Origin: Umezawaea endophytica | GTDB taxonomy: Bacteria; Actinomycetota; Actinomycetes; Mycobacteriales; Pseudonocardiaceae | Direction of reading: 5' to 3' | Length of the DNA: 49,014 bases | NCBI RefSeq assembly: GCF_025061645.1 | Contig: NZ_JANYMP010000029.1 | Coordinates: 70,298 to 119,311, forward strand | Shown: in pieces, positions 48 to 17,227 of the stretch | Numbering within the stretch: position 1 is the first letter of the stretch | Layout: the number at the start of each line of letters is the position of its first letter | Notes under the pieces: generated by a model | What the model was told of the DNA's origin: nothing | Seen by the model: the letters and a program-made list of their open reading frames with translations, nothing else | Databases searched by the model: none | Translations under genes and position numbers: made by a program

Positions 48-1223
48 TCACCAGGCGATCAGGAGCCGGTCCATCGTGGAGCTGAGCCGGGCCTGGGCGT
101 TGCCCGCGGCCGCCTCTTCCGCCGCGTCGGGCAGGCGCAGGGTCGGGAACCGGGCGAGCAGCGCCCGGACGGCGATGGCCAGCTCCATCCGCGCCAGCGG
201 GGCACCGAGGCAGTGCCAGACGCCGTGCGCGAAAGCCAGGTGCGGGTTGGTCTTCCTGCCGAAGTCGATCTCGTCGGGGTCGTCGAAGACGCGCTCGTCG
301 AAGTTCGCCAGCGCGAAGTCCGGCAGCACGAGGTCCCCGGCGCGGATCGTCACCCCCGCGATCTCGATGTCCTCCGCGGCGTAGTGCGGGTGCGCCCCAC
401 CGCCGTAGGTGGCGGTGCGCAGCAGTTCCTCCACGGCGGCCGGGACGAGGTCGGTGTCCTTGATCAGCGCGTCCCTCAGGTCCGCGTTGGCGGCCAGGCG
501 ACCGATGCCGTACCCCACGCTGTTCGCGACGCTGTCGCCGCCCGCGAACATGAGCATGGTGCCCAGCCTGGCGACCTCGTCGTCGGCCAGGCCCGCCGCG
601 ACCAACCCGGACAGCACGTCGTTGCCGCGTTCCAGCCGCTTGCCCGCCACCCTCTCCTGCAAGTACTGGCCGACCTTGGTGGCGTGCTTCTTGGCGTGGT
701 CCTGCTCGTCGAGCACGGCCATCTCGTAGAGCATCCCGTGCAGGGACCTCCACTCGGAGTCGGGGATGCCGACGAACGCGCACAGCACGCGCATCCCCAA
801 CGGCACCGAGAAGTGTTCCTGGAGCTCCATCGGTGGGGTGCCCGCCGCCAGCGAGTCGACCAGTTCGTCCACGATGGACACCACGACGGGTTCGATGGCC
901 CGCATCGCGGACTGGGAGAAGAACGGCGTGAGCACGGCCCGGAACCTGGAGTGGTCGATCGGCTCCGACCGCACCATGTCGAAGATGGGGCTCTGCACGT
1001 ACTGCGCCGCGTTGGTCGGGTCGGGGTGCGAGCGCACCAGCTTGCGGTTCACCAGCAGGGCCCGGATCTCGGCGTGCCGCACCACCAGCCACGCCTCGTC
1101 GCCCGCCGGGGTGCGGACCTTCCAGATCGGCTGCTTGGCCTGCAACTCGCGCAAGTAGTCGTTCTGCCCGAACAGGGGCGAGAACATCTCGGTCATCCTC
1201 GGCAGCTCATCGGCTGAGGTCAC
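48..1223 (-). CDS. Cytochrome P450 with unusual haem loop
   Basis: A 391-aa bacterial class I-type P450, a cytosolic mono-oxygenase that would need ferredoxin partners not seen here. The GTG start at 1223 follows GAGAGGA with 7 bases spacing. The ExxR motif is visible as EELLR. The I-helix reads AGGDSV, so the acidic residue is present but the usual oxygen-path threonine is serine. The haem loop reads FAHGVWHCLG: the cysteine and flanking glycines are kept, but position 2 is Ala instead of Gly and the haem-propionate His/Arg two residues before Cys is Trp, with a His directly next to Cys. It follows two LAL regulators on the same strand after a 79-bp gap and is probably their co-transcribed or controlled target. 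The substrate cannot be read from sequence; a secondary-metabolite tailoring role is inferred from context. Confidence 0.93.
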   Translation of the reverse strand: MTSADELPRMTEMFSPLFGQNDYLRELQAKQPIWKVRTPAGDEAWLVVRHAEIRALLVNRKLVRSHPDPTNAAQYVQSPIFDMVRSEPIDHSRFRAVLTPFFSQSAMRAIEPVVVSIVDELVDSLAAGTPPMELQEHFSVPLGMRVLCAFVGIPDSEWRSLHGMLYEMAVLDEQDHAKKHATKVGQYLQERVAGKRLERGNDVLSGLVAAGLADDEVARLGTMLMFAGGDSVANSVGYGIGRLAANADLRDALIKDTDLVPAAVEELLRTATYGGGAHPHYAAEDIEIAGVTIRAGDLVLPDFALANFDERVFDDPDEIDFGRKTNPHLAFAHGVWHCLGAPLARMELAIAVRALLARFPTLRLPDAAEEAAAGNAQARLSSTMDRLLIAW

Positions 1224-1302
1224 TGTTGTTTCCTCTCAAAGATGTTGCGGATGACCAGTCTCAAGGGGTGCCCGTCCGGAAAACCCTAGTGGTTTCACCG
1301 AC

Positions 1303-4191
1303 TCAGGGCCGCGACCACCAGCCATGACCGGGCGCCAGCGTTACCGGCGCCGGTTCGCGGTCAGCGCCGTCGGCGGTGCGCAGGGCGTCAGCCAGTGCCG
1401 CCCGGCCCGACACCTCCAGCTTGCGGTAGGCGCTCGTGAGGTGCTTCTCCACGGTGCGCAGCGCCACGGCCAGCTCGCCCGCGATCTCCCGGTTGCTCCG
1501 GCCGTCGACGACCAGCCGGGCGACCCGCAGCTCGGCTTGCGTCAACTCGGGCCCCCCGTTCCGGCGATCCGCCCCGGCCAGGTGCGCGGTCGCCCGCTGG
1601 GCGAGCCTGTCCGCGCCGCACCTGGTGGCCAGGTCGCGACCGTCGCGCAGGAGCTGGTCGGCGCGGGGAGCCCCGTCGGCCCGCAGCATGCCGCCCAACT
1701 GCGTCAGCGCCTTCGCCCTCAGCAGCGCGTTCTCCGAGCCCGCCAGGACGTCGACGGCGCGCTGGGTCAGCTCCACGCCCTCCGCTCCCCCGGTCAGCAT
1801 CCCCCGCCACCGCAGGGCGGCGCCCAGAGCGGCAGGCGCACCCCACCGCACCGCGAGCTCGTAGTCCTCGTCGGCCAACCGGCGCGCGGAGTCCAGGTCG
1901 CCGAACTTCAGGTACGCGGTCGCGGCCCACTTGCGCCAGGGGTGCAGCACGGGATTGGACCACCCGGCGTCCTCGAGTAGCTGCCCGCAGTCGAGCACGT
2001 AGCTGAGCCCCCCGCAGGGGTCGGTCCGGCTGAGGAGGAAACCGCGCAGCAGCAACAGGATCGCGTTGCTGCCCACGCGCGGGTAGGCGCCCGCCCGGCG
2101 CGAGGTGCGTTCGAGCACCGCCTCGCCCAGCTTCGCGTCCCCGGACTCGAGCACGACGGCGGCCAGGGTCACGCTCGCCGTCCCCATCCCTTCCGACCAG
2201 CCCTCGTCGGCCAGGTCCCACGCCTCGGTGGCCATCGCCTTGGCCGTGCGCAGGTCGCCGAGGCCCAGGTGCACGAGCGCCTGCTCACAGCGGATGCCCA
2301 CCTGCGCCGTCAACGAGTTGTGCAGGCGCGCCTCCCGCATCGCCGCGTCCAGCCAGGGCACCGCCCACCGCACGGCGTCGGCCGCCAGCAGCACGGGGGT
2401 CAGCATCGGCAGCAGGGTGTGCACGTGCGTGTAGTCCGGCGGTTCCGCGGCCAGGAGGCGGTTGCCCATGTCCGCGACGACGCGCGCGGGCAGCCGCAGC
2501 CGCGTGGTGGCGGAGTGCAACAGCGCGGTGGCGAGCTCGCGCTCACCGCCGGTGCCCAGGTCCAGTCGGGCGTCCGACAGCGCCAGCGCGTCCACCTCGA
2601 CGAGCAGGTCGGACACCGCCCACTCGTTGATCAGGCTCAGCCTGCCCTTCAGCCGCAGCGCCAGGTCCCTGGTCTGGCCGGTCAGCGCGTCCGGGTCACC
2701 GAGGTCGGCGGCTACCCGCTCGACGACGTTCCGTTCACGAGCGGAGACCCCGACGAGCAGGAACGGCGCGATCCGGGAGATCGCGACGGCGCGCTCGCGC
2801 GCGGTGGCGAGCAGCGGCAGGGCCTGCATGACGTGCCGGATGGCCGCGTTGGAGTCGAACTCGCGTTCGGCGGTCGCGAGGTCGACCAGCAGGGCCGCGC
2901 GCTCGGCACCGTCGGGTGGGCACACCTGCAACGCCCTGCGCAGGCAGTGGGCCGCCAGGACGGGCGCGCCGCGGCTCAGCGCGGCGGTCGCCGCCGACCT
3001 CAACGCGGCGATCGCCCGGTCGTCGCCCCAGGTCGTCGTCGCGAGCAGGTGCGTGGCCGTCTGCTCGACCGAGCGCCCGCTGTCGTGCAGCAGCAACGCC
3101 GCGTCGAGCTGGATGTGGTCGCGCTCGGCCGCGGACATGACCTGCTCGACGGCGTCCTGCACGACGGGATGGCAGAACCGGTGGGGCAGGCCCGGCGCGA
3201 GCAGGCCAAGGCTGCTCAGGACGGTCAGCGCGGCCTCGCAGGCGTCCTCGGTGATGCCGAGGAGCCCGCAGAGCAGCTCGCGGTCGGTCAGCTCGCCCAG
3301 CACGCTCATCGCCTTGGCCATGTCCCGTACCGCGGACGGGAGGGACATCAGGCAGGCGGTGAACCGAGCGCGCAGCCGTTCCGGGCGGGAGTTGCGCACC
3401 AGCGCCGCCCCCTCGGCGGTCGGTGGCACGCCGCGGGCCGCCAACGAGGCGAGCAGGCTCACGAGGAACAGCGGGTTGCCGCCGGAGGTCGTCTGGCACG
3501 CCGACACGAACTCGTCCTGCCCGGACGTGTAGAACTCCGCGTGCACCAGCACCCGCGTGCTCGCGATCCCCAAGGGGCCCAACGGCAGCACGCGCGTCGC
3601 TGAACCGGCGAGCCTGCGGACCGCCTCGTGGTTCACGGGCTCGACCCCCGCGCGCAGGGCGAGGACGACGGTGGCAGCGGTGCCCGCCAGGTGGTCGGAC
3701 AGCAGTTCGAGCCAGCGCAACGACGCGGAGTCCACCCACTGGAGGTCGTCCACGAGGATGAGCAGGGGCAGGTCGGCGCTGAGGTTGCGCACCAGCTCCA
3801 GCAGTCCCTGCAACGCCTCGGGCGTCGCGTACGCGGACTCCGGCACGTCGTGCTCGAACGCGCGGTAGGTGAACAGCGGGCGGCACGCCCCGGCGGTGCC
3901 CTGCAACCACCTCTCCCTGTCGGGCTCGGGCGAGGCGACCATGACCGGGTCGAGCAACTGGTGGACCACCCCCAGCGAGTGGTCCTGCTCCAGCCACGCG
4001 CCGTTGGCCCGCATCACCCGGATGCCCTCGTCCGCCGAGTCGCGTCCCACCAGGGTGGGCAGCCCGCGCAGGAACGTCGTGCGCCCGGCACCGACCGCGC
4101 CTGTCACCAGCAGCAACGAGCCGTTGCCCGCCCTGGCCTCGCGCACCGCGTCGGTGACCGCGGCCAGCCCGACCTCCCTCTCGAGGAACAC
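1303..4191 (-). CDS. LAL-type LuxR regulator with K-to-R P-loop
   Basis: A large ATP-binding LuxR-family (LAL) transcriptional regulator, 962 aa. The start is the GTG at 4191, two bases after the stop of the upstream LAL; the open frame continues upstream, but that part is a shadow of the neighbouring gene. The N-terminal P-loop is GAVGAGRTT (residues 31-39), with arginine replacing the catalytic lysine. Walker B is visible as LLILVDDLQWVD. A long alpha-helical TPR-like core follows. The C-terminus carries a LuxR helix-turn-helix (SNREIAGEL, then TVEKHLTSAYRKL) about 25 residues before the end. It is coupled to the LAL upstream (4194-7154) and precedes the P450 gene by 79 bp. In this family the ATPase and core domains sense a ligand and gate DNA binding by the HTH; the ligand is unknown. 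Confidence 0.93.
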   Translation of the reverse strand: MFLEREVGLAAVTDAVREARAGNGSLLLVTGAVGAGRTTFLRGLPTLVGRDSADEGIRVMRANGAWLEQDHSLGVVHQLLDPVMVASPEPDRERWLQGTAGACRPLFTYRAFEHDVPESAYATPEALQGLLELVRNLSADLPLLILVDDLQWVDSASLRWLELLSDHLAGTAATVVLALRAGVEPVNHEAVRRLAGSATRVLPLGPLGIASTRVLVHAEFYTSGQDEFVSACQTTSGGNPLFLVSLLASLAARGVPPTAEGAALVRNSRPERLRARFTACLMSLPSAVRDMAKAMSVLGELTDRELLCGLLGITEDACEAALTVLSSLGLLAPGLPHRFCHPVVQDAVEQVMSAAERDHIQLDAALLLHDSGRSVEQTATHLLATTTWGDDRAIAALRSAATAALSRGAPVLAAHCLRRALQVCPPDGAERAALLVDLATAEREFDSNAAIRHVMQALPLLATARERAVAISRIAPFLLVGVSARERNVVERVAADLGDPDALTGQTRDLALRLKGRLSLINEWAVSDLLVEVDALALSDARLDLGTGGERELATALLHSATTRLRLPARVVADMGNRLLAAEPPDYTHVHTLLPMLTPVLLAADAVRWAVPWLDAAMREARLHNSLTAQVGIRCEQALVHLGLGDLRTAKAMATEAWDLADEGWSEGMGTASVTLAAVVLESGDAKLGEAVLERTSRRAGAYPRVGSNAILLLLRGFLLSRTDPCGGLSYVLDCGQLLEDAGWSNPVLHPWRKWAATAYLKFGDLDSARRLADEDYELAVRWGAPAALGAALRWRGMLTGGAEGVELTQRAVDVLAGSENALLRAKALTQLGGMLRADGAPRADQLLRDGRDLATRCGADRLAQRATAHLAGADRRNGGPELTQAELRVARLVVDGRSNREIAGELAVALRTVEKHLTSAYRKLEVSGRAALADALRTADGADREPAPVTLAPGHGWWSRP

Positions 4192-4193
4192 GG

Positions 4194-7154
4194 TCAGTCC
4201 TCCTCGGCCAGGGTGGGGACGCCGACGTACGCGGCGCGGCGCGGTGGGCGGTCGTCGTCGTGGTCCGCGGACACGGGTCCCCGGTGTCGAGCCGGGCCGC
4301 TGGGGAGGATCTCGACCAGTGCGGACCGCCTGGAGACGCCGAGCTTGCGGTAGATGTTCGTCAGGTGCATCTCGACCGTCCGGACGGTGACGAAGAGGGC
4401 CTCGGCGATCTCCTTGTTGCTGCTGCCCCGCGCGGCGATGTCGGCGACCCGGCGTTCCGCCTCCGTCAGGTTGTCCACGGCGGACCGGCCGGACTGGCGG
4501 CGCCTCCCGCCCGCGGCGGCGTGGAGCCGGCCGGCCGTCCGCACGAGCGCGGAGGCGCCGCACAGGGTGGCCAGGTCCATCGCGACGCGCAGGTGCTTGC
4601 GGGCCGCCCCGGCGTCCCCCAGCCGCAGCAGGGCGGCGCCCAGCCTGCGCTCGGCGTGCGCCAGTTCCAGTTGCGCCGGGCTCGTGGACAACACGTGCAC
4701 GGCCTCGCCGAGCAGGTCCACCGCGCGGGTGCCCGCACTGGCGATCCCCTCCGACAGCAGCCCGATCCCGATCGCGCGCGGCGTCGGCCAGAGCCTGGCC
4801 AGGTCCTGTCCCTCCTCCGCGACGCGGTGCGCCTCCGCCGTCCGCCCCATGCTGGTCAGCACGTACGTGGCGTCGACCCACCACGACGCGACCACCGGGT
4901 TGGTGACGGCGCGCTCGGCGAGGCCGCGCCCGCAGGCGAGCAGGTGGCGCAGCGCGGCGTCCGGGTCACCTGCCACCCACCGGGCGTGTCCCCTCGCCAG
5001 CAGGTAGAGGGGCCATTCGCCCACGACGTCCTCGGGCCGGGACCGGTCGACCAGGTCCAGCAGGTGCTCGGCCTGCCCCGGTTCGTCCTGCGCCGCGTGG
5101 GTGAGGGCGCGCACGATCTCCGGCATGGAGGTCCGAGCCTGTCCTGGGCCGCGTTCGGCCAGGGCGCGGTCACCCTCCGCCGCGGCGGCGTGGAGGTCGC
5201 CGACCCAGTAGTGCAGGTGCGCGCGGCCCGACAGTGCCAGGACGTGCGTCGCCGACGCCTGCTCGCCTCCTCGGTCGGCAAGCCAGCGGTACGCGGTGTG
5301 CGAGGCGTCGACCTCGTCCGCCAAGCGCAGCGCGCGGGCGGCGTTGAGGATCGCCCAGTCGCCCGTGTCGGGCAGCACGCGGGTCGCGCGCGAGGCCCAG
5401 TCGACCACGCGGGCGACCGGAACGCACTCGTCGGCGGCCAGTGCGGACATGAGGCCGAGTGTCTGCCGCTCCCCTGGGCTGTGCCCGGACGGCGGGGTCA
5501 TCCCGCGGACCTTCGCGCGGGCGAGGCCGACGGTCGACCTCTCCTCCGCGCTGGTGGCCAGCAGCACCCCCTCGGCTGTCGCGAGCAGTTCCCGGTCCGC
5601 GGGCGACGGCCGGTCGCCGACCAGCAGGGTCAGCTCGTCGAGTGCGCCGCCGACCACGCGGGCGCCCTCCAGCGCCCGGCGCGCGATGAGTGAGGTGAGA
5701 CCGAACTTCGCGGCGATGACCGTCCTGGTCCGGGGGTCGGCCGTCTCGGAGATGGCGATGCCCAGTTGCTCCAGCGCGGCCACCGGGTCGGACTCGCCAA
5801 GCGACCGGGCGAGGTCGACCCGGATGTGGGGTCGCGCGGCCTCGTCCCGGCCGAGTTCGATCGCTCGGCGCAGGTAGTCGACCGCCACGGTGTGGGCGCC
5901 CCGCTGTTGGGCGCCCGCGGCCGCCTCGACCAGCACTCCCACCATCCAGGACTCCGGCAGGTCGGACAGCAGCATCAGGTGCCGCGCGATGTCCTCGGCA
6001 GGCCACCCGGCGTCGTTGAGCAGCCGGGCGACCTTGGAGCGCAGCCTCTCGACCTCCTCTCCCCTGATCCGCCCGATCACACTGGCGAACAGGGAGTCGT
6101 GCGCGAACACGAGTGAGTCCGGTCTGAGCACGTCGATGCGGCGCAGGGCGTCCAGTGCCTCGGTGACCTGCCGGGACGGCACTCCGGCCAGCTCCCCGAG
6201 GGAGTGCGGTCCGACGTCCGCGGTCGTGCCGTCCAGCAGCGCCACCGCCGTGGCGACGGCGCGCACGGACTCCGACTGCTCGACGAGCCGGTCCAGCGCC
6301 GACTCGGCGACGACCGCGCCGCCGACGCGGGCCACCGCGTCGGCGGCCGCGGCGTCCGTGCTGACGCCGGAGCGGGCCAGTTCCTCCAGCAGTCGACGCA
6401 ACAGGAGCGGGTTGCCCCTGGACACGTCCGCGCACGAACGGACGAACAGCGGGTCGAGCCGGTCGTCCAGGACGATGCCCGCCAGCTCGGCGACATCCGC
6501 GTGACCGAGTGGAGGGAGGTCGACGGTCTCGGCGCGCGGCTCGGCGACCATGGCCGCGAGGATGCCCTGGACGGGCCCCGGGGTGTCGGTGCGCTGGCCG
6601 AGCACCACCAGCAGCGGCAGGCGGTCCGCGCGGCGCAGCAGGAACTCCAGCCAGCGCAGGGAGGGCTCGTCGCACCACTGCGCGTCGTCGAGCACGATCG
6701 CCAGCGGCTGGTCGGTCATCACCTCGGCGGCGAGCCAGAACAGGCCGTACAGCACCTGGTAGTGCAGGAGTCTCGGCATGTCGGAACCGGCCGAGCGGCT
6801 GACGGTCAGCGCCTCCCGCGCCCACGTGGCGCCGACCTGCGCCCGGTGCCGCGCGGTCACGTCGTCCGCCGCGTCGGCGACCTCCGCCAGCGCGAACAGG
6901 GCCCGCACGGCGGCGTACCCCGTCTCGCGTTCGGTTTCGGCGCAGCTCGCGTGCAGGACGAGGAACTCGTCGTGGCGGAGCACGTCCCGCCGCACCGCGG
7001 CCAACAGGCTGGTCCTGCCCACACCCGCCGGCCCGCGCACCACGACGAGCCGCGAGTGGCCCGCGTGCGCGGCCTTCGCGCACTCCGACAGCCTGGACAA
7101 CTCGGTCGACCGGCCGAGCAGAGGCCAGTCACTCGCTACGGACTTGTCCGGCAT
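4194..7154 (-). CDS. LAL-type LuxR regulator with K-to-R P-loop
   Basis: A 986-aa LAL regulator and first gene of the LAL-LAL-P450 run. The ATG at 7154 follows an AAGGGTAAGGG stretch acting as ribosome site. The N-terminal LLGRSTEL region is typical of LALs. The P-loop is GPAGVGRTS (residues 41-49), again with Arg instead of Lys; Walker B is LAIVLDDAQWCD. A helical-repeat core spans roughly residues 350-900. The C-terminal HTH contains SNKEIAEALFV and TVEMHLTNIYRKLGV. Its stop lies 2 bases before the GTG of the next LAL, so the two are almost certainly translated together and may act as a pair. The 234-bp gap upstream to the PAS-LuxR gene presumably holds the promoter. Confidence 0.93.
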   Translation of the reverse strand: MPDKSVASDWPLLGRSTELSRLSECAKAAHAGHSRLVVVRGPAGVGRTSLLAAVRRDVLRHDEFLVLHASCAETERETGYAAVRALFALAEVADAADDVTARHRAQVGATWAREALTVSRSAGSDMPRLLHYQVLYGLFWLAAEVMTDQPLAIVLDDAQWCDEPSLRWLEFLLRRADRLPLLVVLGQRTDTPGPVQGILAAMVAEPRAETVDLPPLGHADVAELAGIVLDDRLDPLFVRSCADVSRGNPLLLRRLLEELARSGVSTDAAAADAVARVGGAVVAESALDRLVEQSESVRAVATAVALLDGTTADVGPHSLGELAGVPSRQVTEALDALRRIDVLRPDSLVFAHDSLFASVIGRIRGEEVERLRSKVARLLNDAGWPAEDIARHLMLLSDLPESWMVGVLVEAAAGAQQRGAHTVAVDYLRRAIELGRDEAARPHIRVDLARSLGESDPVAALEQLGIAISETADPRTRTVIAAKFGLTSLIARRALEGARVVGGALDELTLLVGDRPSPADRELLATAEGVLLATSAEERSTVGLARAKVRGMTPPSGHSPGERQTLGLMSALAADECVPVARVVDWASRATRVLPDTGDWAILNAARALRLADEVDASHTAYRWLADRGGEQASATHVLALSGRAHLHYWVGDLHAAAAEGDRALAERGPGQARTSMPEIVRALTHAAQDEPGQAEHLLDLVDRSRPEDVVGEWPLYLLARGHARWVAGDPDAALRHLLACGRGLAERAVTNPVVASWWVDATYVLTSMGRTAEAHRVAEEGQDLARLWPTPRAIGIGLLSEGIASAGTRAVDLLGEAVHVLSTSPAQLELAHAERRLGAALLRLGDAGAARKHLRVAMDLATLCGASALVRTAGRLHAAAGGRRRQSGRSAVDNLTEAERRVADIAARGSSNKEIAEALFVTVRTVEMHLTNIYRKLGVSRRSALVEILPSGPARHRGPVSADHDDDRPPRRAAYVGVPTLAEED

Positions 7155-7388
7155 CCCTTACCCTTCGGTCTTCGAGCGTGTCTCCTGACGACCCGTGGCA
7201 CCGCGCGACAAGGCTGCGGAAACCGTGTGCACAGCCCACGGGCCAAGTGGGAGTCAACCTTCGACAGCACAATCCGCTCACTGCATGAATACCAGAGAGC
7301 GGGCCTCGAAGGCACCGCGCCCGTAAACGACCTCTGCCACGAGTACCGCACGTGAGCGCACGGAAGTCGAGGTAGAGGAATTCCCAAT

Positions 7389-8111
7389 TCAGCTCGCCAC
7401 GTCATCACGCCACGAAGGCGCGACCCGAGGCGGCCACACACCGACGCTGAGAATGCCCAACTCGTATGCCTTGGACACCAGGGAGGCGCGGTTCGGCACG
7501 TCCAGTGCCCTCAACATCGCACCGACGTGGTATTCGACGCCTTGCCGACTCAGGTAGAGCTGAGTCGCCAATTGCATCGTCGAGATACCGGCTGCGACGC
7601 CTTCCAGGACGCGCCCGCCCATCCCGACGAAACGCAGTCCTTTCTTCCCCGGAACAGACAACTGGTCGACCGTGTGGTCGTAGGGGACGAAAACCGCGAA
7701 CATGCTGATGGACCATTCGGACCGCCCGCCTGCCGGAATCAAGCTCAGGTCACCCAGCACGGCGCCATCGCCCTTGCGCAGCAGGACGATGTTCTCGATC
7801 ACCTGCCCCCGGCCGCCGTCGACGAGCGTCGCCAGCCGTTGTCGCAGGTTGACCAGGAACGCGGGGTGCAGGAAGTCCGCGAGGGCCAGGCCGCGAACGT
7901 CGTCGGCGGACCGGTTGATCACCCGGAGGAAATCGTCATTCGCGTCGACGACGCGATCGTCGAGGTCGATGCAGAAAATACCGAGTCCCGACCAGTCGAA
8001 CAATGACCGGAAGAGGTGATCCGACGCACTCGAACCCAATCGATCCTCACCACACGCGGACCCGGCATCGGCCACGACGGCGTCGATGACACCAACATCC
8101 ATCTCGAACAA
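7389..8111 (-). CDS. PAS-LuxR transcriptional regulator
   Basis: A small two-domain regulator (240 aa from the chosen start) with an N-terminal PAS sensor (from LFRSLFDWSGLGIF, residues about 32-150) and a C-terminal LuxR-type HTH (STMQLATQLYLSRQGVEYHV). The architecture resembles the PAS-LuxR activators of antibiotic clusters (PimM type). I chose the TTG at 8111 because GGAGG stands four bases before it and because the paralogue at 24813-25478 begins similarly (M-F); an ATG four codons further in, or a GTG at 8135, are alternatives. It ends with the same SVxxWPPRV tail as the paralogue. It lies upstream of the LAL-LAL-P450 run on the same strand and may control it. Confidence 0.85.
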   Translation of the reverse strand: MFEMDVGVIDAVVADAGSACGEDRLGSSASDHLFRSLFDWSGLGIFCIDLDDRVVDANDDFLRVINRSADDVRGLALADFLHPAFLVNLRQRLATLVDGGRGQVIENIVLLRKGDGAVLGDLSLIPAGGRSEWSISMFAVFVPYDHTVDQLSVPGKKGLRFVGMGGRVLEGVAAGISTMQLATQLYLSRQGVEYHVGAMLRALDVPNRASLVSKAYELGILSVGVWPPRVAPSWRDDVAS

Positions 8112-9071
8112 GGATCCTCCATTGACCAGAGACACGGCTACGCATCGGGGAACTGCCGTGCAAAAGTTTCCAACGACGTAACATCGAGATCGAATCGGGC
8201 CGGGATCAGGCCCGAACGATTATTACGGGTTGATCCGTAACGATGCAATGATTCGAGACGGGGGCGCCGGCTAAGTATGCGGCAACAGGCGGTCGAGTGC
8301 GGTTCGCACTAGGCTGTTCAGTCGTACGAAAATGCGCCGTACGGCCGCACGAATGCCACTCAGGGTGACATTGCGTAGTGGATGACGGCGTGGACGCCCA
8401 GCTCCGGCTACGAAAGGTGACCGCGATCCGCGACGCCGTGAGGCCCCCTCCACACCCTCCGACATCACGACCACTACGGCGCGGACGGACCTGGTTCAGG
8501 CCGATGACCTGCACGAACACTGGATGTCGACCACGGATGTCGATAGTGATTCAAGGGGTCCCGCGCACTCGGGAGAGCGCGCACAAGAGGCCCACCACGC
8601 GAACCGGGGCGGCGCCCCTATCGCGGGTGGCGAGATCGTGCCACCCGAGCGGTATCGGCAGACCGACCTATCCACTTCTTTCGCGTGACTGCGGTCACAA
8701 ACTCCTGTTTGCGAAACGGAAAGACCGTTCACATTAACCCGGAGTCCCACTTTGACAGAGACCGGCGAACCGCTGCGAACTCGTCCACGACCGTGGACGC
8801 ACTATCAGAGGCGAGCCGGAACAGGCAAGGCCCACGCCGTCCACGCCACAAAATCACCCAGCACGTCTCGAATGGCGAGAATGCCGCACCACATCGGACA
8901 GGCCGCGTCGACAACCAGCCGGGAAACCGCCGGGTCAGACTGAGAAATCGCACCGAGCGATCTACGGGCACCATCGCCGAATGCGAATTAAGCTCAGGAA
9001 TTGGTCGTCGTCCGCCGGAGGGGCGCCGCGGCGGGCGTCCGCCACGACGACCGCGTCCCCGCTTCCCGACG
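8112..9071. other. Long non-coding interval with small inverted repeats
   Basis: About 960 bp without a convincing gene: the short open frames here lack family resemblance, good ribosome sites and coding-like third positions. It holds the upstream region of the PAS-LuxR gene and the downstream side of the 93-aa gene. Visible small palindromes are TTACGG-6-CCGTAA (8223-8240), GTTTGCGAAAC (8707-8717) and AACGG-5-CCGTT (8715-8729). They could be regulator sites, but nothing assigns them to a gene. Confidence 0.6.
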
Positions 9072-9353
9072 TCAGGCGATGTGCGGCCGGTAGCCGCCGA
9101 TGCCCTCGTCGTCGGCGTGGCTCCACAGATCGGGGTCGTACGGCGCGTCCGACACGTAGACGACCTCGTCGGCCGGGTAGCCCGATGCCGGGGCCAGACC
9201 CAGCAGGTCGGCGGCGTCGATCTCGAGGCGCTCCACGCCGTTCACGAGCCGCCGGATCGCCGCGTGATCTCCGTGGGCGGCACGCAGTGCCCCGAGGCAG
9301 CGACGCAGCTCACCCAACGCACGGTGCAGGTCGGAGTTGTTGGCACTCGTCAC
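9072..9353 (-). CDS. Orphan 93-aa homologue of a LuxR N-terminal domain
   Basis: A small predicted cytosolic protein. The GTG at 9353 is chosen because GGAGG lies 5 bases upstream and because the homology begins there; the frame continues upstream without coding signs. The segment LRRCLGALRAAHGDHA, then RLVNGVERLEIDAADL, matches the first about 50 residues of the divergent 623-aa protein (LRRCLVLLHAKHGNHA, RLANGLGRLEIDAADL), and PADEV follows in both. It ends in an acidic, aromatic tail (DLWSHADDEGIGGYRPH). No catalytic, metal or DNA-binding motif is visible. I do not recognise a named family. A role as partner or antagonist of the divergent regulator is inference from shared domain and position. 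Confidence 0.8.
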   Translation of the reverse strand: MTSANNSDLHRALGELRRCLGALRAAHGDHAAIRRLVNGVERLEIDAADLLGLAPASGYPADEVVYVSDAPYDPDLWSHADDEGIGGYRPHIA

Positions 9354-9983
9354 GGGAACCTCCAAGTTCGCCTTGCGGACTCGTCCTCGCAGCTTTTCGA
9401 CCGGGGTGCCCCAGAACACCCGCACCCCTGACCGTTCAGGCCAGCGACCGAACTGACAAGTACCTCCGGCATCTCCTGGTGATTCCGCAGTGCGGATCCC
9501 GCTTCCGCTGGTCGGGTCCGACACCGGGATCGCACCGGAATGCCTTTACAACGCGGCATCCGACGGAATCGGACGCCGCCGATCGCCGAGCGGCGACACC
9601 GCCACGGCCTGCACCACACCGCCCGCGGCGGAATCGATTGCCACCACTTCCGCCATCGGAGACGGCCGCCTCCCCGGACCTTGGTGATTTCCCTACACAT
9701 CCGCACGGGCGGCGGTCGGACGAAGAATCGTCGATAACATCGGCGGCATGCGCGGCCCACGCCTTCCGAGCTAGATGGGAAACACCCACCGACGACCGAG
9801 AACGCATCCGCGCCGTCCATTTCCGCACCGGTTCCCGCCGAACCAGGTCGCTTCTCGACCAATCCCGCACAGGTCCGGAACCCGGTGCCGCCACCGCTTT
9901 CCCCGCACGGCCGGGGTCGCCCCGCGGCGGCCCGGCCGCCCGGTGAGTGGGTGCCGGAACCACCAGGCCGAGGAGGTTGTCCG
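9354..9983. promoter_or_regulatory. 630-bp divergent control region
   Basis: The shared upstream region of the 93-aa gene (leftward) and the ATPase-less LuxR gene (rightward). It contains both ribosome sites: GGAGG 5 bases before the GTG at 9353, and AGGAGG at 9971-9976, 7 bases before the ATG at 9984. Long open frames run through it on both strands but are high-GC artefacts. I could not assign clear -35/-10 pairs or an operator. Confidence 0.45.
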
Positions 9984-11855
9984 ATGAACACGGCGAAGAA
10001 CACCGCACTGCACCACACCCTCGCAGAGCTCCGCCGCTGCCTTGTGCTGCTGCACGCGAAGCACGGCAACCACGCGGTGATCCAGCGCCTCGCGAACGGG
10101 CTCGGGCGGCTGGAGATCGACGCGGCGGACCTGCCAGGTGCTCGGCGCGGACCCGCCGACGAGGTGTTGCCGAACGCGACCCCGGCACCGTGGCTCCACG
10201 TGGTGCAGCAGGGCGCGGACGGCGAGGTGGCGAAGTGGGCGCTGCTCGACGACCAGGTCGAGGACGCGCTCGAGTACCTGGAACTCGCGATCCGCGACCG
10301 CACCGACGAGGTCCCCTTCGAGCTCACGATGATGCTGGTGCGCCTCAGGTTCCGACTCAGCCCGGCCTCCGTGCTCCAGCAGGTGCCCGCACTGGCGGAG
10401 GCCATGCGCGAGGGCAGGTTGCACGGCCGCGGCCTGCTCTGGTTCGTGCGCTTCCTCGTCCTGAACGGCCGGGTGGACGACGTCGCCGCGGGCTTGACGC
10501 GGCTCGTCGAGCGGATGGACGAACTGGACGAGCACAGCGTGGCCGAACTGATGAGCACCCGGATGTGGGCCGCTTACTCGCACCCCGACCTCGCTCGCGT
10601 GCTGCCCTCGGTGCCGATCGGCTCCGACCGGTCGCCGGTCGACGTGGACGCGCCGGTCCGCGCGGCCACCGCGTTGGCAGATTTGGTCGGCCGTGAACTC
10701 GACGACGCGGCGGAGGACGCGGAGCGCGTACTGAAGGAGGCCGATCCCGTCGAGCGGCCGGGCGAGGCCGTCCGCGAGGCGCTGCACACGCTGCTGCACC
10801 TGGAGAAGTTCCACCGGGTGAAGTCCTGGTGCGACACCTTCTTGACCGACGGTCCCGAGTCGTCCGGCCCACCGGACTGGCGGCGAGAGCTGGCGGCGAT
10901 CCGCGCCCAGGCCGCGCTGCGCACAGGTGACCTGCCCGCTGCCCGCGAGTACGCGCGATTCGCGCTGGAGAGAACCGCCTCCGGCACCAGCGGTGCCGAC
11001 ATCGGCATGGCGCTCGGCACGCTGGTGCAGGCGAGCACCGCGATGGGAAAGCTCACCGAGGCCACCGAGACCTTGGCTCTCGGTGTACCCCAAAACCTCT
11101 ACCGCGCCCAGCACGGGTTGCAGCACTACTTGTTCGCCAAGGCCTGTCACCACCTGGCCACGCGGCAGCTACCCGAGGCGCTGAACGACTTCCTCTCCTG
11201 CGGCGAACTGATGGTGGCGTGGAAGGTGGACTCGCCAGGGATCCTGCCGTGGCGCACCGGCGCCGCCGAGGTGTACCTGCTGCTGGGCAACCAGGCCAAG
11301 GCTCGGGAACTGGTCGACGAGCAGCTAGCGCTGCCGGTGGCCGGGCCGTCACTCTCGCACGGCACGGCCTTGCGGATCAAGGCCGCCACGGTACGACCGC
11401 GGCGACGCTCCCAGTTGCTGCACCAAGCGCTGGACGAACTCCAGGCCGCGGGCGGGCAGTTGGAGGTCGCCCGCGTGATGGCCGACCTGAGCCGCCTCCA
11501 CCACGAACTGGGGGAACGCGGCCGAGCGCGGGTGACCATCCGACGGGCCTGGTGGCTCGCCAAGGCCTGCCAGGCGGAGCCGCTGTGCGACGAACTGTTC
11601 CCCGACCGGAGCCGCGCGGCGAGCAGACCGGAGGCCAACGAGGTCGAGGTGGGCCCCGCCGCGCTGTCCGACGCCGAACGGCGAGTCGCGGAACTGGCCG
11701 CGCTCGGGCACACCAACCGGGAGATCGCCAACAAGCTCTACGTCACGACCAGCACCGTCGAGCAACACCTGACGAAGGCGTACCGGAAGCTGAAGGTCAC
11801 ACACCGCAGAAGCCTGCCCGCCGTGATGTCCAACGACGTCATCTCCACCGCCTGA
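9984..11855 (+). CDS. ATPase-less LAL-like LuxR regulator
   Basis: A 623-aa regulator. The ATG at 9984 is fixed by AGGAGG 7 bases upstream; the open frame extends further back without coding character. Residues about 1-60 form the domain shared with the divergent 93-aa protein. Residues about 60-540 are helical repeats that resemble the distal core of LALs (SCGELMVAWKVDSPGILPW compares with DCGQLLEDAGWSNPVLHPW in the LAL at 1303-4191). The C-terminus is a LuxR HTH (TNREIANKLYV, TVEQHLTKAYRKLKV). No Walker A or B motif exists anywhere, so the N-terminal NTPase of normal LALs (900-1000 aa) has been replaced by the short domain. It presumably acts as a DNA-binding regulator independent of ATP. 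Confidence 0.88.
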   Translation: MNTAKNTALHHTLAELRRCLVLLHAKHGNHAVIQRLANGLGRLEIDAADLPGARRGPADEVLPNATPAPWLHVVQQGADGEVAKWALLDDQVEDALEYLELAIRDRTDEVPFELTMMLVRLRFRLSPASVLQQVPALAEAMREGRLHGRGLLWFVRFLVLNGRVDDVAAGLTRLVERMDELDEHSVAELMSTRMWAAYSHPDLARVLPSVPIGSDRSPVDVDAPVRAATALADLVGRELDDAAEDAERVLKEADPVERPGEAVREALHTLLHLEKFHRVKSWCDTFLTDGPESSGPPDWRRELAAIRAQAALRTGDLPAAREYARFALERTASGTSGADIGMALGTLVQASTAMGKLTEATETLALGVPQNLYRAQHGLQHYLFAKACHHLATRQLPEALNDFLSCGELMVAWKVDSPGILPWRTGAAEVYLLLGNQAKARELVDEQLALPVAGPSLSHGTALRIKAATVRPRRRSQLLHQALDELQAAGGQLEVARVMADLSRLHHELGERGRARVTIRRAWWLAKACQAEPLCDELFPDRSRAASRPEANEVEVGPAALSDAERRVAELAALGHTNREIANKLYVTTSTVEQHLTKAYRKLKVTHRRSLPAVMSNDVISTA

Positions 11856-12272: not shown

Positions 12273-12959
12273 TCAATCGGCCCTGCGGGCCGCCTGCATC
12301 AGCGGGAGGATGTTGGTGAGCGTGTGGTGGCGGTTCTCCGGGCTGGTCGCCGCGACGAGGTCCACCCGCGGGTCCCACGGGTGCTCGAGCATGCCGGCCA
12401 CCGCACGGGCAGTGTCGGTGTTCTCCAGCCGGTCGACCAGGTGCAGTGCCATGTCGATGCCTGCGGTGATGCCCGCGCTGGTCACCACCGGGCCAGCGTC
12501 CACCCAGCGCCGGTCGCGGACGACCTCGACCTTCGGGTGCTGCCCGGCCAACTCGTCCAGGACGAGCCAGTGGGAGGTGGCGGCGCGGCCGTCGAGCAGA
12601 CCGGCCGCGGCGTAGACCATCGCGCCGTTGCAGACCGAGGTCATGATCGTGCCGTGCTCGGCGAGGGCCCGCATCCGGGCCAGATGGGTCTGGTCGGCGT
12701 ACAGCGTGTCGATGCCCGCGCCGCCGGGGTGCACGATGAGGTCGGGCCGAGGCTCGTCGTCGATCCCGCCGTCCGGGGTGACCGTCAACCCCAGCGCACA
12801 GCGTACGGGCGCCCCGTCGAGGCTGGCCGTACGCACGCTCACCGGACGGGTCGCCACCGTCTGCCAGATCCGGAGCGTCTCCCACGGGCCGGTGAAGTCC
12901 AACTCCTCGACACCGTCGAAAAGGAGCACGGTGATGCGGTAGGGCCGTGTGTCCGTCAT
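12273..12959 (-). CDS. DJ-1/PfpI family protein (isonitrile hydratase-like)
   Basis: A 228-aa cytosolic protein of the DJ-1/PfpI (class I glutamine amidotransferase-like) superfamily. The ATG at 12959 follows GAAGGA with 8 bases spacing. The nucleophile elbow is SVCNGA, followed by GLLDGRAATSHW, the usual nucleophilic Cys and nearby His region. The opening RITVLLFDGVEELDFTGPWE is characteristic of the isonitrile hydratase/ThiJ-like subgroup, but the substrate cannot be decided. It is divergent from the GlxA-type regulator at 13030 (70 bp between starts), which is probably its controller; the two share the DJ-1 fold. Confidence 0.88.
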   Translation of the reverse strand: MTDTRPYRITVLLFDGVEELDFTGPWETLRIWQTVATRPVSVRTASLDGAPVRCALGLTVTPDGGIDDEPRPDLIVHPGGAGIDTLYADQTHLARMRALAEHGTIMTSVCNGAMVYAAAGLLDGRAATSHWLVLDELAGQHPKVEVVRDRRWVDAGPVVTSAGITAGIDMALHLVDRLENTDTARAVAGMLEHPWDPRVDLVAATSPENRHHTLTNILPLMQAARRAD

Positions 12960-13029
12960 GCCCTCATCCTTCGTGCCCCGCCCCGCCCCGACGAGAAGCA
13001 GGAATGCCCCTGATCGATAGGATTCCGCC

Positions 13030-14166
13030 ATGACCGGTTCGTCCAGGCGGCGCCATCGCATCGCGGTGCTCGCCCTCGACGGTGTGCAGCCGATGGAAGT
13101 CGGCATGCCGTTCCAGACCTTCGGCCTCCACGACAGCCGCTACGACGTCATCTTGTGCGGGCAGTCCGCCGGGCCGGTCGAGACCCTCAACGGCTGGTCG
13201 CTCACCGCGCCGTACGGCCTCGACGAGGTGGTCACGGCGGACACGGTGATCGTGCCGGCCTACCGGGGCTCGGAGCGGGACACCCCACCGGATGCCACCC
13301 CGGACGTGCGCGACGCGCTCCGCGAGGCGCACTCCCGTGGCGCGCGGATCGCCACCATCTGCGCGGGCGCGTTCGCCCTGGCCTCCACCGGCCTGCTCGA
13401 CGGCAAGCGCGCGACCACCCACTGGCTGCTCACCGATGAGCTAGCCCGCCGGCATCCGCGCGTCGAGGTGGATCCCGGCGTGCTCTACGTCGACAACGGT
13501 TCCCTGATCACCTCGGCCGGGGTGGCCAGCGGCATCGACCTCTGCCTGCACCTTCTGCGCCGGGACTGCGGCGCGGCCACGGCCACGTCGATCGCCCGCG
13601 GAATTGTGGCCGCGCCACACCGCGAGGGCGGACAGGCACAGTACGTGACCCGCCCGCCCGCGCCACCGAACCGCACCGAGCTGAGCGCGACCCTGGAGTG
13701 GGCCCTGCGCCGCCTCGACACCCCGCTGACGGTCGCCGAGTTGGCCGCGCACGCTGTGGTCGCCGAGCGCACGTTCGCCCGGATGTTCACCGCGCAGCTC
13801 GGGGTCAGCCCGATCAAGTGGCTCACGGCCGCCCGGATCAGCCGCGCCCGCGAACTACTCGAGACGACCGACGCCGGCATAGACCACGTCGGCCAGGCAT
13901 GCGGTCTGGGAACCCCGGCGAATTTCCGCCACCACTTCCGGCTCGCGACAGGAACCACCCCGACCGACTACCGCCGCACCTTCTCATCCCGCACCCCCCA
14001 CCCGGTGTCCACGCCTCGCCGAAGAGGGTTGCTGGCGGAGTTGCAGGCGGAGTTGCAGGCGGACTTGCCCGGACCGCTTGGCCCTGGGCGGACATCAGCA
14101 CCACGATCGCCCGCCATCGGGTCGAACCCTGGCGGCGCGAACGGGCGTGTGCGCGGGGCCTGCTGA
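13030..14166 (+). CDS. GlxA-family AraC-type regulator
   Basis: A 378-aa transcriptional activator with an N-terminal DJ-1/PfpI-like sensor (TICAGAFALASTGLLDGK, then THW) and a C-terminal AraC HTH pair (residues about 220-320, ending at GTTPTDYRR). The ATG at 13030 has AGGA 7 bases upstream, and also a TAGGAT box 6 bases upstream, so it may be leaderless. After about residue 322 the protein has an atypical tail with a 12-bp DNA repeat and runs into a transposase remnant, so the C-terminus has probably been altered by an old insertion. It likely regulates the divergent PfpI gene. Confidence 0.9.
   Translation: MTGSSRRRHRIAVLALDGVQPMEVGMPFQTFGLHDSRYDVILCGQSAGPVETLNGWSLTAPYGLDEVVTADTVIVPAYRGSERDTPPDATPDVRDALREAHSRGARIATICAGAFALASTGLLDGKRATTHWLLTDELARRHPRVEVDPGVLYVDNGSLITSAGVASGIDLCLHLLRRDCGAATATSIARGIVAAPHREGGQAQYVTRPPAPPNRTELSATLEWALRRLDTPLTVAELAAHAVVAERTFARMFTAQLGVSPIKWLTAARISRARELLETTDAGIDHVGQACGLGTPANFRHHFRLATGTTPTDYRRTFSSRTPHPVSTPRRRGLLAELQAELQADLPGPLGPGRTSAPRSPAIGSNPGGANGRVRGAC
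14028..14063 (+). repeat. Three tandem 12-bp units in the GlxA tail
   Basis: The unit GTTGCWGGCGGA occurs three times head to tail (one with T, two with A), encoding LAELQAEL-type repeats at the end of the GlxA-like protein. A fourth, decayed unit may follow. It lies between the conserved AraC domain and the transposase remnant. Confidence 0.8.
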
Positions 14167-15489: not shown

Positions 15490-15825
15490 CTACTCCCCCA
15501 GCACCCTCATACGCGCCAACGGGACGTGGTGCTGACCGGCGTGAATATCGCGGTCTCGAAGCGAACCCTGGCTGATCGGGCGCGGGAAGGACACCTTCAC
15601 GACGTTGAGCGAGGGGATCCGGAAGATCTGGATGGAGCGGGCGTCCACGCCGTAGAGCCCGCTCACCACCTGTTCGTTGATGAAGGACTCGTCCGCGACG
15701 ATCGCATAGCCTTCGGAGTCGCGCATGAACAGCTCCATGGTGACCCAGAACGGACCGGCGTTCTTGGAGCGCACCTCGATCGCCAGGTCGGCGAGCGTAC
15801 GTCCCTCCGCAAGGGTCTCAGACAT
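15490..15825 (-). CDS. DUF4387 family protein
   Basis: An 111-aa protein that matches the DUF4387 family by its opening (LADLAIEVRSKNAGPFWVT), the central SGLYGVD segment and the end of the fold (NVVKVSFPRP). The ATG at 15825 overlaps the end of the AtuA-like gene by 8 bases, so translation is coupled. DUF4387 proteins are commonly encoded beside AtuA-like (DUF1446) proteins, and here they are contiguous. Their biochemical function is not established; a two-subunit enzyme with the AtuA-like partner is an inference from constant pairing. Confidence 0.85.
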   Translation of the reverse strand: MSETLAEGRTLADLAIEVRSKNAGPFWVTMELFMRDSEGYAIVADESFINEQVVSGLYGVDARSIQIFRIPSLNVVKVSFPRPISQGSLRDRDIHAGQHHVPLARMRVLGE

Positions 15826-17227
15826 AACTGGCCTCTCCCATCTTGGTGCGGAACAGCTTGGTGGGGGTTGTGTCGACGGCGTGGTTCAGCACGAACTCGT
15901 ACGCGGGTCCGCGCTCGATCTCGGCCGGGGAGTAGGGGAAAGCCAGACTGGGCAGGTAGTCCATGTCATGGGCGGGCAGGTGGAGCATGAGTGGATTGGC
16001 GACTTTCGCGACGGCGGTGGCGGTCGCCTGGTCACCGGCGTTGACGAGCAGCATCACTCCGACTTCCCGCGGAGGTGCGGACTCGGGCTCGAGTTCGTCG
16101 AGCACCGCGTTGTGGCCGTAGAGACGGATGTCGAAGGCGTACTCGGACGGTTCGAGTTCCAGCGTCTGCCTGACTCGACCGATGATCGTCTCGCGCAAGA
16201 ACCCCGCCCAAGCGTCGATCTGACCGAGGATGATCGGGTCTCGGACCGCGCTGAAGGAAACGGTCTCGAAGCCCGAGATCCGAGCCCCCTCCAGCTTGAT
16301 CGTGTACTGGTCGGCCACGTGGAACCGCGAGCCCTCCACCCGCACGACGCGGTCGTCAACCGCGGTGTAGACGGCGTCTCGGACGTCAAGCGTGCCGTCA
16401 GGCTCGCGCATCTCGAACGGGTTGACCGTCTCGTAGAGCATGTGGGCCGCCACGGAGATCGGGGTGCACGCCGCGTCCGGGCTCAGGGGCTCGATCGAGA
16501 ACCCGGTCGCGTCGATCGTGGCGAGCACCCCACCCTCACGCGGATTGGTCGTGCACAGACCGCCACACTCGACGATCTTCGCGGCGTGCCAGGTCGGACC
16601 CGCGGGCATCCCCTTCATCAGCGGGTACGCCGCAGCAACCGCGGTGTCGGTAGCACGCCCGGCCAGCACGACCTGCGCTCCGCCCTGGAGGGCTTCCACG
16701 ATCGGCTCATGCCCCATGACCCCGACGATGTGGGTGCAGCTCTCGAGCGTCTCCGAGTCGAGTTCTCCCGCCGGTGCCAGAGCGCGAACACGGCCGGCGG
16801 CCACGTCGTCCTTCAGGTGGGCCGCGTCCTGCTCGCTGTAAATTCGCGCGACCTTGAGGTCGATGCCTTCCTCCCTCATCACATCCGCGACGATTCCGGC
16901 GACCCAATCCACCCCCTTGTCGGTACCGCTGGTGCCACAGGAACCCACGATGAGTGGAATGTTCGCTCGGGCGGACGCCCTGAGCAGGTGGCGAAGGTCG
17001 CGCTTGACCGCTTGCGCCGTGGACTTCGAGCTCGCCGAACCCAGGTAGTAGGGCCCGCTGTCGGTCGATCCACCATCCACGCTGATGACATCGGCACCGA
17101 GTTCGAGGCCACGCTCGATGGTGGCCTCCGGAAATCCGCTACCCAGCATCCCGGTGGCGGCAAGCACCCGGACCACGTCTCCTGGTCGGTTGTCCATCTT
17201 CTCTCCCTGTGTAGTCGACGTAGTCAT
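15818..17227 (-). CDS. AtuA-like (DUF1446) acyclic terpene utilisation family protein
   Basis: A 469-aa member of the AtuA/DUF1446 family, named after an acyclic terpene utilisation gene of Pseudomonas but of unproven chemistry. The typical N-terminal pattern is visible (GSGFPEATIERGLELGADVI, then DGGSTDSGPYYLG), as are later SCGTSGTDKG and VLAGRATDTAV segments. The ATG at 17227 overlaps the upstream dehydrogenase stop (ATGA); an ATG ten codons later (MDNRPGD) has GGGAG nearby and is an alternative. It sits between a hydroxyacid dehydrogenase and its DUF4387 partner. I infer a catabolic role on a hydroxy- or oxo-acid. Confidence 0.87.
   Translation of the reverse strand: MTTSTTQGEKMDNRPGDVVRVLAATGMLGSGFPEATIERGLELGADVISVDGGSTDSGPYYLGSASSKSTAQAVKRDLRHLLRASARANIPLIVGSCGTSGTDKGVDWVAGIVADVMREEGIDLKVARIYSEQDAAHLKDDVAAGRVRALAPAGELDSETLESCTHIVGVMGHEPIVEALQGGAQVVLAGRATDTAVAAAYPLMKGMPAGPTWHAAKIVECGGLCTTNPREGGVLATIDATGFSIEPLSPDAACTPISVAAHMLYETVNPFEMREPDGTLDVRDAVYTAVDDRVVRVEGSRFHVADQYTIKLEGARISGFETVSFSAVRDPIILGQIDAWAGFLRETIIGRVRQTLELEPSEYAFDIRLYGHNAVLDELEPESAPPREVGVMLLVNAGDQATATAVAKVANPLMLHLPAHDMDYLPSLAFPYSPAEIERGPAYEFVLNHAVDTTPTKLFRTKMGEASYV

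What the first reader, a model, noticed from the sequence alone, without database searches (positions are those of the whole stretch)
9072..11855. Divergent pair: orphan small domain and ATPase-less LuxR protein that carries the same domain
The 93-aa protein and the first about 50 residues of the 623-aa LuxR protein share a clear motif (LRRCL, A-x-HG-x-HA, RLEIDAADL). The large protein lacks the P-loop NTPase that defines LAL regulators and has this short domain instead. Two divergent genes sharing a private domain suggest a two-part regulatory device, for example the free domain titrating or capping the regulator. I know of no named family for the domain.
Basis: partly seen in the sequence, partly recalled or inferred. 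Interest (0 to 1): 0.75.

Follow-up and report, generated by a model that had tools for sequence, protein, structure and literature searches.

The report
Respiration-operon protein fused to antibiotic-type regulator
A small helical protein that normally sits in front of the succinate dehydrogenase genes of soil bacteria has been copied beside, and once fused into, a gene regulator, where it takes the place of the regulator's ATP-driven switch; this is a new arrangement of known parts.

Summary
The 93-aa protein (9072-9353, -) and residues 1-52 of the 623-aa LuxR protein (9984-11855, +) are homologous, and the LuxR protein has no ATPase domain. The domain is not private. It belongs to an unnamed family found in 283 of 390 genomes of the family and 73 of 296 of the class, usually encoded directly upstream of sdhCAB (78 of the 80 named loci kept). 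Rv0250c of the tuberculosis germ is a member. The protein is a helical hairpin plus a disordered tail with a conserved motif. Extra free copies lie beside LAL/LuxR genes in 14 of 24 cases (4 of 9 contexts). The window LuxR is sister to an intact LAL elsewhere in the genome (67% identity), with that LAL's first 388 residues replaced by a copy of the neighbouring free protein's hairpin, its tail decayed. Both genes are under purifying selection. Most likely the hairpin replaces NTPase-driven oligomerisation and is the docking site for the free partner; this mechanism is inferred, not shown. New variant of a known kind.

The parts
9072..9353 (-). free small protein, 93 aa, GTG start, stop included
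   Evidence: homologues; dN/dS 0.24 against U. tangerina
9201..9350 (-). helical hairpin of the free protein (residues 2-51)
   Evidence: AlphaFold2 helices 2-27 and 31-51, block pLDDT 92-98 over residues 11-50
9093..9155 (-). conserved C-terminal tail motif VSDAPYDPDLWSHADDEGIGG (residues 67-87), predicted disordered
   Evidence: 12 tail columns (D, P, Y, D, L, W, D, D, E, G, G, G) invariant in 60 sequences; low pLDDT
9354..9983 (.). intergenic region between the divergent genes, 84% mean column identity with U. tangerina
   Evidence: repeats were not tested against chance and are not interpreted
9984..11855 (+). LuxR-type regulator, 623 aa, no ATPase domain
9984..10139 (+). fused copy of the hairpin (residues 1-52)
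   Evidence: nested with the free protein of the same locus in the tree, support 100/98; helices 3-27 and 31-48
10140..10223 (+). junction: decayed linker/tail of the small protein (residues 53-80), predicted disordered
   Evidence: pLDDT under 50 at 53-88; highest dN/dS of the parts of this gene tested, 0.42
10224..11654 (+). TPR-like helical body (residues 81-557), homologous to LAL residues 389 onward
   Evidence: 67% identity to the own-genome LAL on contig C9 over residues 81-623
11661..11816 (+). GerE/LuxR helix-turn-helix (residues 560-611)
   Evidence: Pfam PF00196 E 2.4e-11
7389..8135 (-). neighbour: PAS-LuxR regulator
   Evidence: Pfam PAS_4, GerE
4194..7154 (-). neighbour: intact LAL (LAL2), same strand as the free gene; sister of the g16 (Amycolatopsis) LALs that form operon-like pairs with a small gene
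   Evidence: Pfam AAA_16, GerE; tree
1303..4191 (-). neighbour: intact LAL (LAL1)
   Evidence: Pfam AAA_16, GerE

Best explanation
The regulator is a LAL (MalT-type STAND regulator) whose nucleotide-binding switch was replaced by a copy of a small helical-hairpin protein encoded next to it. SHOWN: homology of the two hairpins; origin of the fused copy from the free gene of this locus; origin of the body from a paralogue of an intact LAL; loss of the ATPase; loss of the tail motif from the fused copy; purifying selection on both genes; usual linkage of the family to sdhCAB; linkage of extra free copies to LAL genes in several lineages. INFERRED: (1) the hairpin is a dimerisation/docking module that now provides the self-association which ATP binding gives an ordinary LAL, so the regulator no longer needs ATP; (2) the free protein pairs with it through the same hairpin surface and, through its intact tail, which the regulator lacks, changes the regulator's assembly or recruits something to it. 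The free protein would then set how much of the regulator is in the DNA-binding form. In lineages without the fusion the free protein would act on the intact LAL beside it, as MalY acts on MalT.
For: Pairwise homology. Body 67% identical to the own-genome LAL from residue 81; the tree places both as Umezawaea paralogues, 100/100. Fused hairpin nested with the free copies of the same locus, 100/98. The fused hairpin is the most constrained part of its gene among those tested, dN/dS 0.11. In 22 genomes of the family with extra copies (loci), 14 of 24 free copies away from sdh lie beside a LAL/LuxR gene: 8 pairs in genus g16, 1 in G297, 3 Umezawaea convergent pairs and 2 Umezawaea divergent pairs. 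The chance that 4 of 9 contexts adjoin a LuxR-type gene is 0.0001 with the GerE hits found and 0.0006 if every first-look candidate is counted; without the window itself (3 of 8) it is 0.0015 to 0.006. The model shows a hairpin, a disordered linker, then the helical body. MalT precedent: its nucleotide-binding module drives the oligomerisation needed for DNA binding, and MalY represses by blocking it (PMC10427625: abstract and two sections read).
Against: No interaction was tested or predicted; no complex prediction tool was available. 0 of 27 LAL loci outside Umezawaea that are nearest to the sister LAL have a small gene within about 1.5 kb (at least one locus is cut by a contig end), so LALs in general do not need it. 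10 of 24 extra copies are not beside a LAL. The fused hairpin has a long branch (1.82) and could have lost its old partner surface. The LAL-linked free copies are not one clade, and the copies in the window and in G297 may share one ancestral linkage; with 2 of 7 contexts the chance is 0.02 to 0.04. The contexts were counted by me, the gene number is an estimate, the GerE searches scored only 150 candidates a genome, and the binomial assumes independence.
Confidence: 0.4

Rival explanations
1. The fused hairpin is only a homodimerisation handle. The free protein does not bind the regulator; the neighbouring gene merely donated the DNA.
For: The fused copy arose from the adjacent gene, which needs no functional link. 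The hairpin is joined by a disordered linker. Its best, weak match is the two-helix hairpin of CpxA (sequence E 0.0016; Foldseek E 0.24), which is a dimerisation hairpin (recalled).
Against: Free copies are linked to intact LALs in other lineages where no fusion was seen. The free gene beside the fusion is kept under selection in two species.
Confidence: 0.27
2. The free protein is the partner of the intact LALs LAL2/LAL1 on its own strand, not of the fused regulator; the fused regulator is a separate by-product.
For: LAL2 (4194-7154) is sister to the g16 LALs that form operon-like pairs with a small gene. The free gene, the PAS-LuxR gene, LAL2 and LAL1 are on one strand, and the order is kept in U. 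tangerina.
Against: The g16 small proteins are in another clade than the window copy. A PAS-LuxR gene lies between. The C9 LAL, the closest relative of the fused body, also has a small gene beside it in 3 of 3 Umezawaea genomes.
Confidence: 0.2
3. The fused gene is a decaying LAL remnant with no function.
For: It lacks the domain that defines its family; the junction is poorly conserved (dN/dS 0.42).
Against: Open frame of 623-626 aa in two species, dN/dS 0.23 over the body and 0.17 over the last 70 residues.
Confidence: 0.06
4. The small proteins do a metabolic job tied to membrane or CoA enzymes (assembly or maturation of succinate dehydrogenase and the like), and the copies beside regulators report that enzyme's state to the LAL. 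This does not exclude the other explanations.
For: 78 of 80 named loci, and 16 of 18 class-level and 9 of 10 order-level loci that I chose, have sdhC directly downstream; so do the best copies of all 17 further multi-copy genomes. The tail stays where the second helix is lost (L202, L214). Other copies adjoin acyl-CoA carboxyltransferase-like genes (L143 by Pfam; L145 and L148 by likeness to it). In the tuberculosis germ CRP is reported to bind promoters upstream of Rv0250c and Rv0249c (passage of PMC9927398).
Against: No evidence that any copy touches the enzyme; the family profile finds no chain of the Sdh1 structures 7D6V/7D6X, and one paper treats sdh1 as Rv0247c-Rv0249c without naming Rv0250 in its main text (PMC4239112, term search).
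Confidence: 0.25

Closest known systems
LAL regulators / MalT (STAND transcription activators)
   Same: TPR-like body and C-terminal GerE domain; 67% identity of the body to an intact LAL of the same genome
   Different: The AAA_16 domain and everything up to LAL residue 388 are missing and replaced by the small-protein copy with its 52-residue hairpin
MalT with its inhibitors MalY and MalK (and Aes, recalled)
   Same: A protein from elsewhere in metabolism acts on a LAL by controlling its oligomerisation or location (abstract and two sections of PMC10427625)
   Different: MalY binds the nucleotide-binding domain, which the window regulator does not have; I did not compare MalY with the hairpin
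First gene of the mycobacterial sdh1 operon (MSMEG_0420 / Rv0250c)
   Same: Same family: its N-terminal peptide in a table of PMC2884946 (passage) matches locus L129 at 14 of 17 residues, and the operon position is the same (passage of PMC2799521)
   Different: Linked to succinate dehydrogenase, not to a regulator; called conserved, hypothetical or uncharacterized in passages of PMC8669151, PMC13043812, PMC8121289, PMC7324553 and PMC2905415
SCO6993 of Streptomyces coelicolor, a short LAL-type LuxR (606 aa)
   Same: Similar length and C-terminal LuxR domain; dimer in solution (passages of PMC9628970)
   Different: Reported there to keep a P-loop domain (residues 23-135, weak E-value); no hairpin domain is mentioned in the passages seen
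CpxA DHp hairpin
   Same: Antiparallel two-helix hairpin
   Different: Match not significant in structure (E 0.24) and weak in sequence (E 0.0016); treated as fold resemblance only

Membership tests
[quoted passage not shown]
   No AAA family up to E 1, no G-x4-GK[TS]; AAA_16 found in the sister LAL and in the three other linked LALs scanned. The pattern alone also misses LAL1 and LAL2, which match AAA_16
[quoted passage not shown]
   PF00196 at 560-611, E 2.4e-11
[quoted passage not shown]
   67% identity over residues 81-623; tree support 100/100
[quoted passage not shown]
   623 aa
sdh-operon small-protein family (unnamed; no Pfam or NCBIfam match below E 0.001) | hairpin with conserved R17, G28, R35, N38, E41, R42, I45, D46 | tested here: met
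   free protein; the window fused copy keeps all but E41, which is G
sdh-operon small-protein family (unnamed; no Pfam or NCBIfam match below E 0.001) | C-terminal tail motif | tested here: met
   free protein yes; fused copy no
sdh-operon small-protein family (unnamed; no Pfam or NCBIfam match below E 0.001) | sdhC directly downstream (usual, not universal) | tested here: not met
   the window copy has no sdh beside it; the sdh-linked copy of the same genome is on contig C2
MalT-MalY type control | partner binds the regulator and blocks oligomerisation | not testable with these tools
   no complex prediction available

The most novel reading that the evidence does not exclude
The sdh-operon small protein is a mobile control module. 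Across actinobacteria it couples the state of a respiratory or CoA enzyme to a LAL regulator of secondary metabolism through hairpin pairing and tail exchange, and in Umezawaea the pairing has become so tight that the hairpin replaced the ATP switch. A STAND regulator thereby became an ATP-free, partner-titrated regulator.
Probability: 0.2. Interest if true: 0.8.

Novelty: new variant of a known kind. Interest (0 to 1): 0.55.

Why it matters
If the partner reading is right, an unnamed protein conserved beside succinate dehydrogenase in much of the Actinomycetes also serves as partner of LAL regulators, a family that includes regulators of antibiotic production (recalled; examples in listing). 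The natural fusion points to a partner and to an interface, and it gives a small 85-residue fragment and a 93-residue protein with which to test it. It would also show a route by which a STAND regulator can lose its nucleotide switch and stay functional. Even if the partner reading is wrong, the sdh-linked family deserves a name and a test: it is in 283 of 390 genomes of the family.

Tried and rejected
Weak own-genome hits (E 0.17 and above): the one examined, L005, shows no family member; the others were not read. The apparent second copy in G011 is a wrong frame inside a transporter-like gene. Long open frames around sdh-linked matches (415-456 aa; L187-L190 read) are open GC-rich stretches that end with the small gene, with sdhC in a separate frame; L191 is a small gene followed by its stop and sdhC. 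They are not fusions to sdhC. Other fusions to regulators: the extra copies of all 22 multi-copy genomes were read, and apart from the two Umezawaea regulators none is fused. The match list was cut and only 12 candidates a genome were scored, so a weak lone fusion could be missed. One-copy genomes were not read one by one. Names: Pfam and NCBIfam give nothing below E 0.001 for 40 members. PDB: nothing beyond hairpin-like matches. The Foldseek search with the LuxR model returned generic TPR proteins with poor superposition (rmsd 13.7 and more among the 50 shown), so it was not used. Repeats in the intergenic region were not tested against chance; I propose no operator. A redox idea was dropped: the helix-1 cysteine is kept in both window proteins and Rv0250c is named among the most abundant TrxB targets in a passage of PMC10371808, but the C9-type and g16 copies lack the cysteine. 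PMC13118837 (one passage) speaks of other genes syntenic with sdh in Streptomyces, not of this one. Print: searches in the open library showed no function for the small protein and no such fusion. Of the 11 papers that name Rv0250c I saw passages of 9; PMC2246267 and PMC3207917 were seen only as listings. Most subscription papers are not held.
Full report
WHAT WAS CHECKED. The two genes are where the finding puts them. The 93-aa protein and the start of the LuxR protein are homologous: 49% identity over 87 residues, E 4e-20. The free protein starts at GTG 9353 behind a GGAGG; these ten bases are identical in U. tangerina. The genome behind the window has 11.0 Mb. It is of the same genus as G001, whose contig C7 (610,673 bases) has the length of the U. 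tangerina record found by name, so I call the genus Umezawaea.

COPIES IN THE SAME GENOME. Besides the window pair there are two more free copies. One, of 96 aa on contig C2, lies directly upstream of sdhCAB and divergent from edd (SdhC by match to 7D6V; SdhA, SdhB and edd named by eye). The other, of 95 aa on contig C9, lies 0.6 kb from and convergent with a complete 933-aa LAL. That LAL has AAA_16 at 2-170 and GerE at 870-921. The window LuxR protein is 67% identical to it over residues 81-623 against 389-933. So the regulator is a LAL body with its first 388 residues exchanged for about 80 residues of the small protein.

THE FAMILY. It was found in 67 of 100 relatives, 283 of 390 genomes of the family, 139 of 298 of the order and 73 of 296 of the class. 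The named search found 193 places and kept the best 80. sdhC follows directly on the same strand in 78 of these 80, in 29 of 29 loci fetched outside the own genome, in 9 of 10 order-level and in 16 of 18 class-level loci; the last two sets were chosen by me. The two named exceptions are the U. tangerina window-type locus and L043. L212 is a weak match without sdh. L195 and L213 are the same G571 site, where sdh lies about 5 kb away. No Pfam or NCBIfam model fits below E 0.001. Mycobacterial papers give four genes for the sdh1 operon (passage of PMC2799521) but three subunits for the enzyme (passage of PMC12713383); another counts only Rv0247c-Rv0249c (PMC4239112, passages). The N-terminal peptide of Rv0250c in a table of PMC2884946 matches locus L129 at 14 of 17 positions, so the first gene of that operon is a member.

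ANATOMY. AlphaFold2 on 60 sequences gives helices 2-27 and 31-51 with high confidence and a disordered tail (mean pLDDT 78.8, pTM 0.51). The tail carries a strongly conserved motif, about [PS]D[TA]PYDPxLWxxADDEGxGG. By a loose pattern 137 of 145 distinct sequences keep it; frames of 400 aa or more were left out of this count. The 8 without include the window fused copy; some of the other seven are divergent rather than without a tail. In two loci, L202 and L214, much of the hairpin is lost but the tail stays. In the LuxR fusion the hairpin stays and the tail is lost. So the two modules are separable. The model of the LuxR protein shows the hairpin, a linker of pLDDT below 50 at residues 53-88, then a helical body and the HTH (mean pLDDT 77.8, pTM 0.59, 21 sequences). 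I did not inspect hairpin-body contacts.

EXTRA FREE COPIES. Of 283 positive genomes, 23 showed two or more matches. One (G011) is an artefact. In the other 22 the best copy has sdhC beside it: 17 of 17, and G000, G001, G002, G009 and G023. These 22 genomes hold 24 further free copies, all read (the middle of the output was cut, so L148 was seen in part). Beside a LAL/LuxR gene: 8 loci of genus g16, L149-L156, small gene directly upstream and same strand; G297 (L146), LAL then small gene, same strand; 3 Umezawaea C9-type loci; 2 Umezawaea window-type loci. That is 14 of 24. Genus g16 I take to be Amycolatopsis, because its sdh-linked copies group with named Amycolatopsis. The script classed L151 as 'other' because its LAL match was partial; the LAL gene is next to the small gene and I count it. 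Not beside one: 3 loci of the Actinosynnema type (G023, G150, G160) after a conservon-like cluster and P450 (names recalled), 4 loci by CoA-enzyme-like genes (L125, L143, L145, L148), and L140, L144, L147. As contexts this is 4 of 9. GerE hits number 143, 92 and 150 in three genomes, with 150 candidates scored in each of 243, 195 and 265. With these hits and about 1,050 bases per gene (my estimate), chance gives 0.0001 for 4 of 9 and 0.0015 for 3 of 8 without the window. With every candidate counted it is 0.0006 and 0.006. If G297 and the window are one event as well, 2 of 7 gives 0.02 to 0.04. From the other side, 0 of 27 non-Umezawaea LAL loci near to the C9 LAL have a small gene within about 1.5 kb.

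DESCENT. The small-protein tree (97 rows, 98 columns; many forks unresolved) joins both fused copies with both window-type free copies at 100/98. These join the Actinosynnema-type copies and G297 at 98/95. The g16 and C9-type copies lie elsewhere. The LAL tree puts the fused bodies beside the C9 LALs at 100/100, the g16 LALs beside window LAL2, and the G297 LAL in a third place. So LAL linkage arose at least twice and perhaps three or four times; long branches make the finer placing unsure. The fusion was seen only in two of three Umezawaea genomes held.

SELECTION. dN/dS between the window and U. tangerina: free gene 0.24 (hairpin 0.16, linker and tail 0.38), fused hairpin 0.11, junction 0.42, body 0.23, last 70 codons 0.17; comparisons LAL2 0.39, LAL1 0.42, sdh-linked small gene 0.04 (Nei-Gojobori, one pair of species). 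Both genes are kept as proteins. The free tail in the window locus is less constrained than its hairpin.

MECHANISM. In MalT the nucleotide-binding module drives the oligomerisation needed for DNA binding, and MalY represses by covering that surface (PMC10427625, abstract and two sections). The window regulator lacks this module. A hairpin that can pair with itself and with the free protein is the simplest replacement. The free protein keeps the tail that the regulator has lost. I therefore favour a partner-set regulator that does not depend on ATP, at 0.4. The docking step is inference. The main rivals are a plain homodimer handle (0.27) and a partner for the intact LALs next door (0.2). A metabolic reporter role (0.25) does not exclude the others.

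VERDICT. It is a new variant of a known kind. Interest 0.55.

Noticed in passing
L149-L156, about 7992-8264 and the adjoining LAL: Eight genomes of genus g16 carry a small gene and a LAL as a tight same-strand pair, followed in most by an 85-93 aa PqqD-like frame (name recalled) and flanked by a thioesterase-like gene and a P450-like gene (names by eye).
   Followed up: partly
L143 7989-9708, L145 6625-8267, L148 6483-8210: Small-protein copies lie directly behind an acyl-CoA carboxyltransferase-like gene on the same strand (Pfam tested for L143 only).
   Followed up: partly
L043 3970-6273 and L126, L141, L142: Small-protein copies of the window clade follow a conservon-like cluster ending in a P450 (names recalled).
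   Followed up: partly
L202 4989-5216 and L214 4977-5210: Short sdh-linked members have lost much of the hairpin but keep the tail motif, which suggests that the tail is the part needed for the sdh-linked role.
   Followed up: partly
L136 4800-5054: In G031 only the tail part of the sdh-linked member matches, although sdhC follows; it may be truncated or frame-shifted.
   Followed up: no
window 48-8135: A P450, two LALs and a PAS-LuxR gene on one strand next to the pair; the same order is kept in U. tangerina (L123), while the other flank differs.
   Followed up: partly
window 15490-17197: DUF4387 protein beside an AtuA-family protein, then a D-2-hydroxyacid dehydrogenase.
   Followed up: no
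window 12273-14166: DJ-1/PfpI protein divergent from a DJ-1/AraC (GlxA-like, name recalled) regulator.
   Followed up: no
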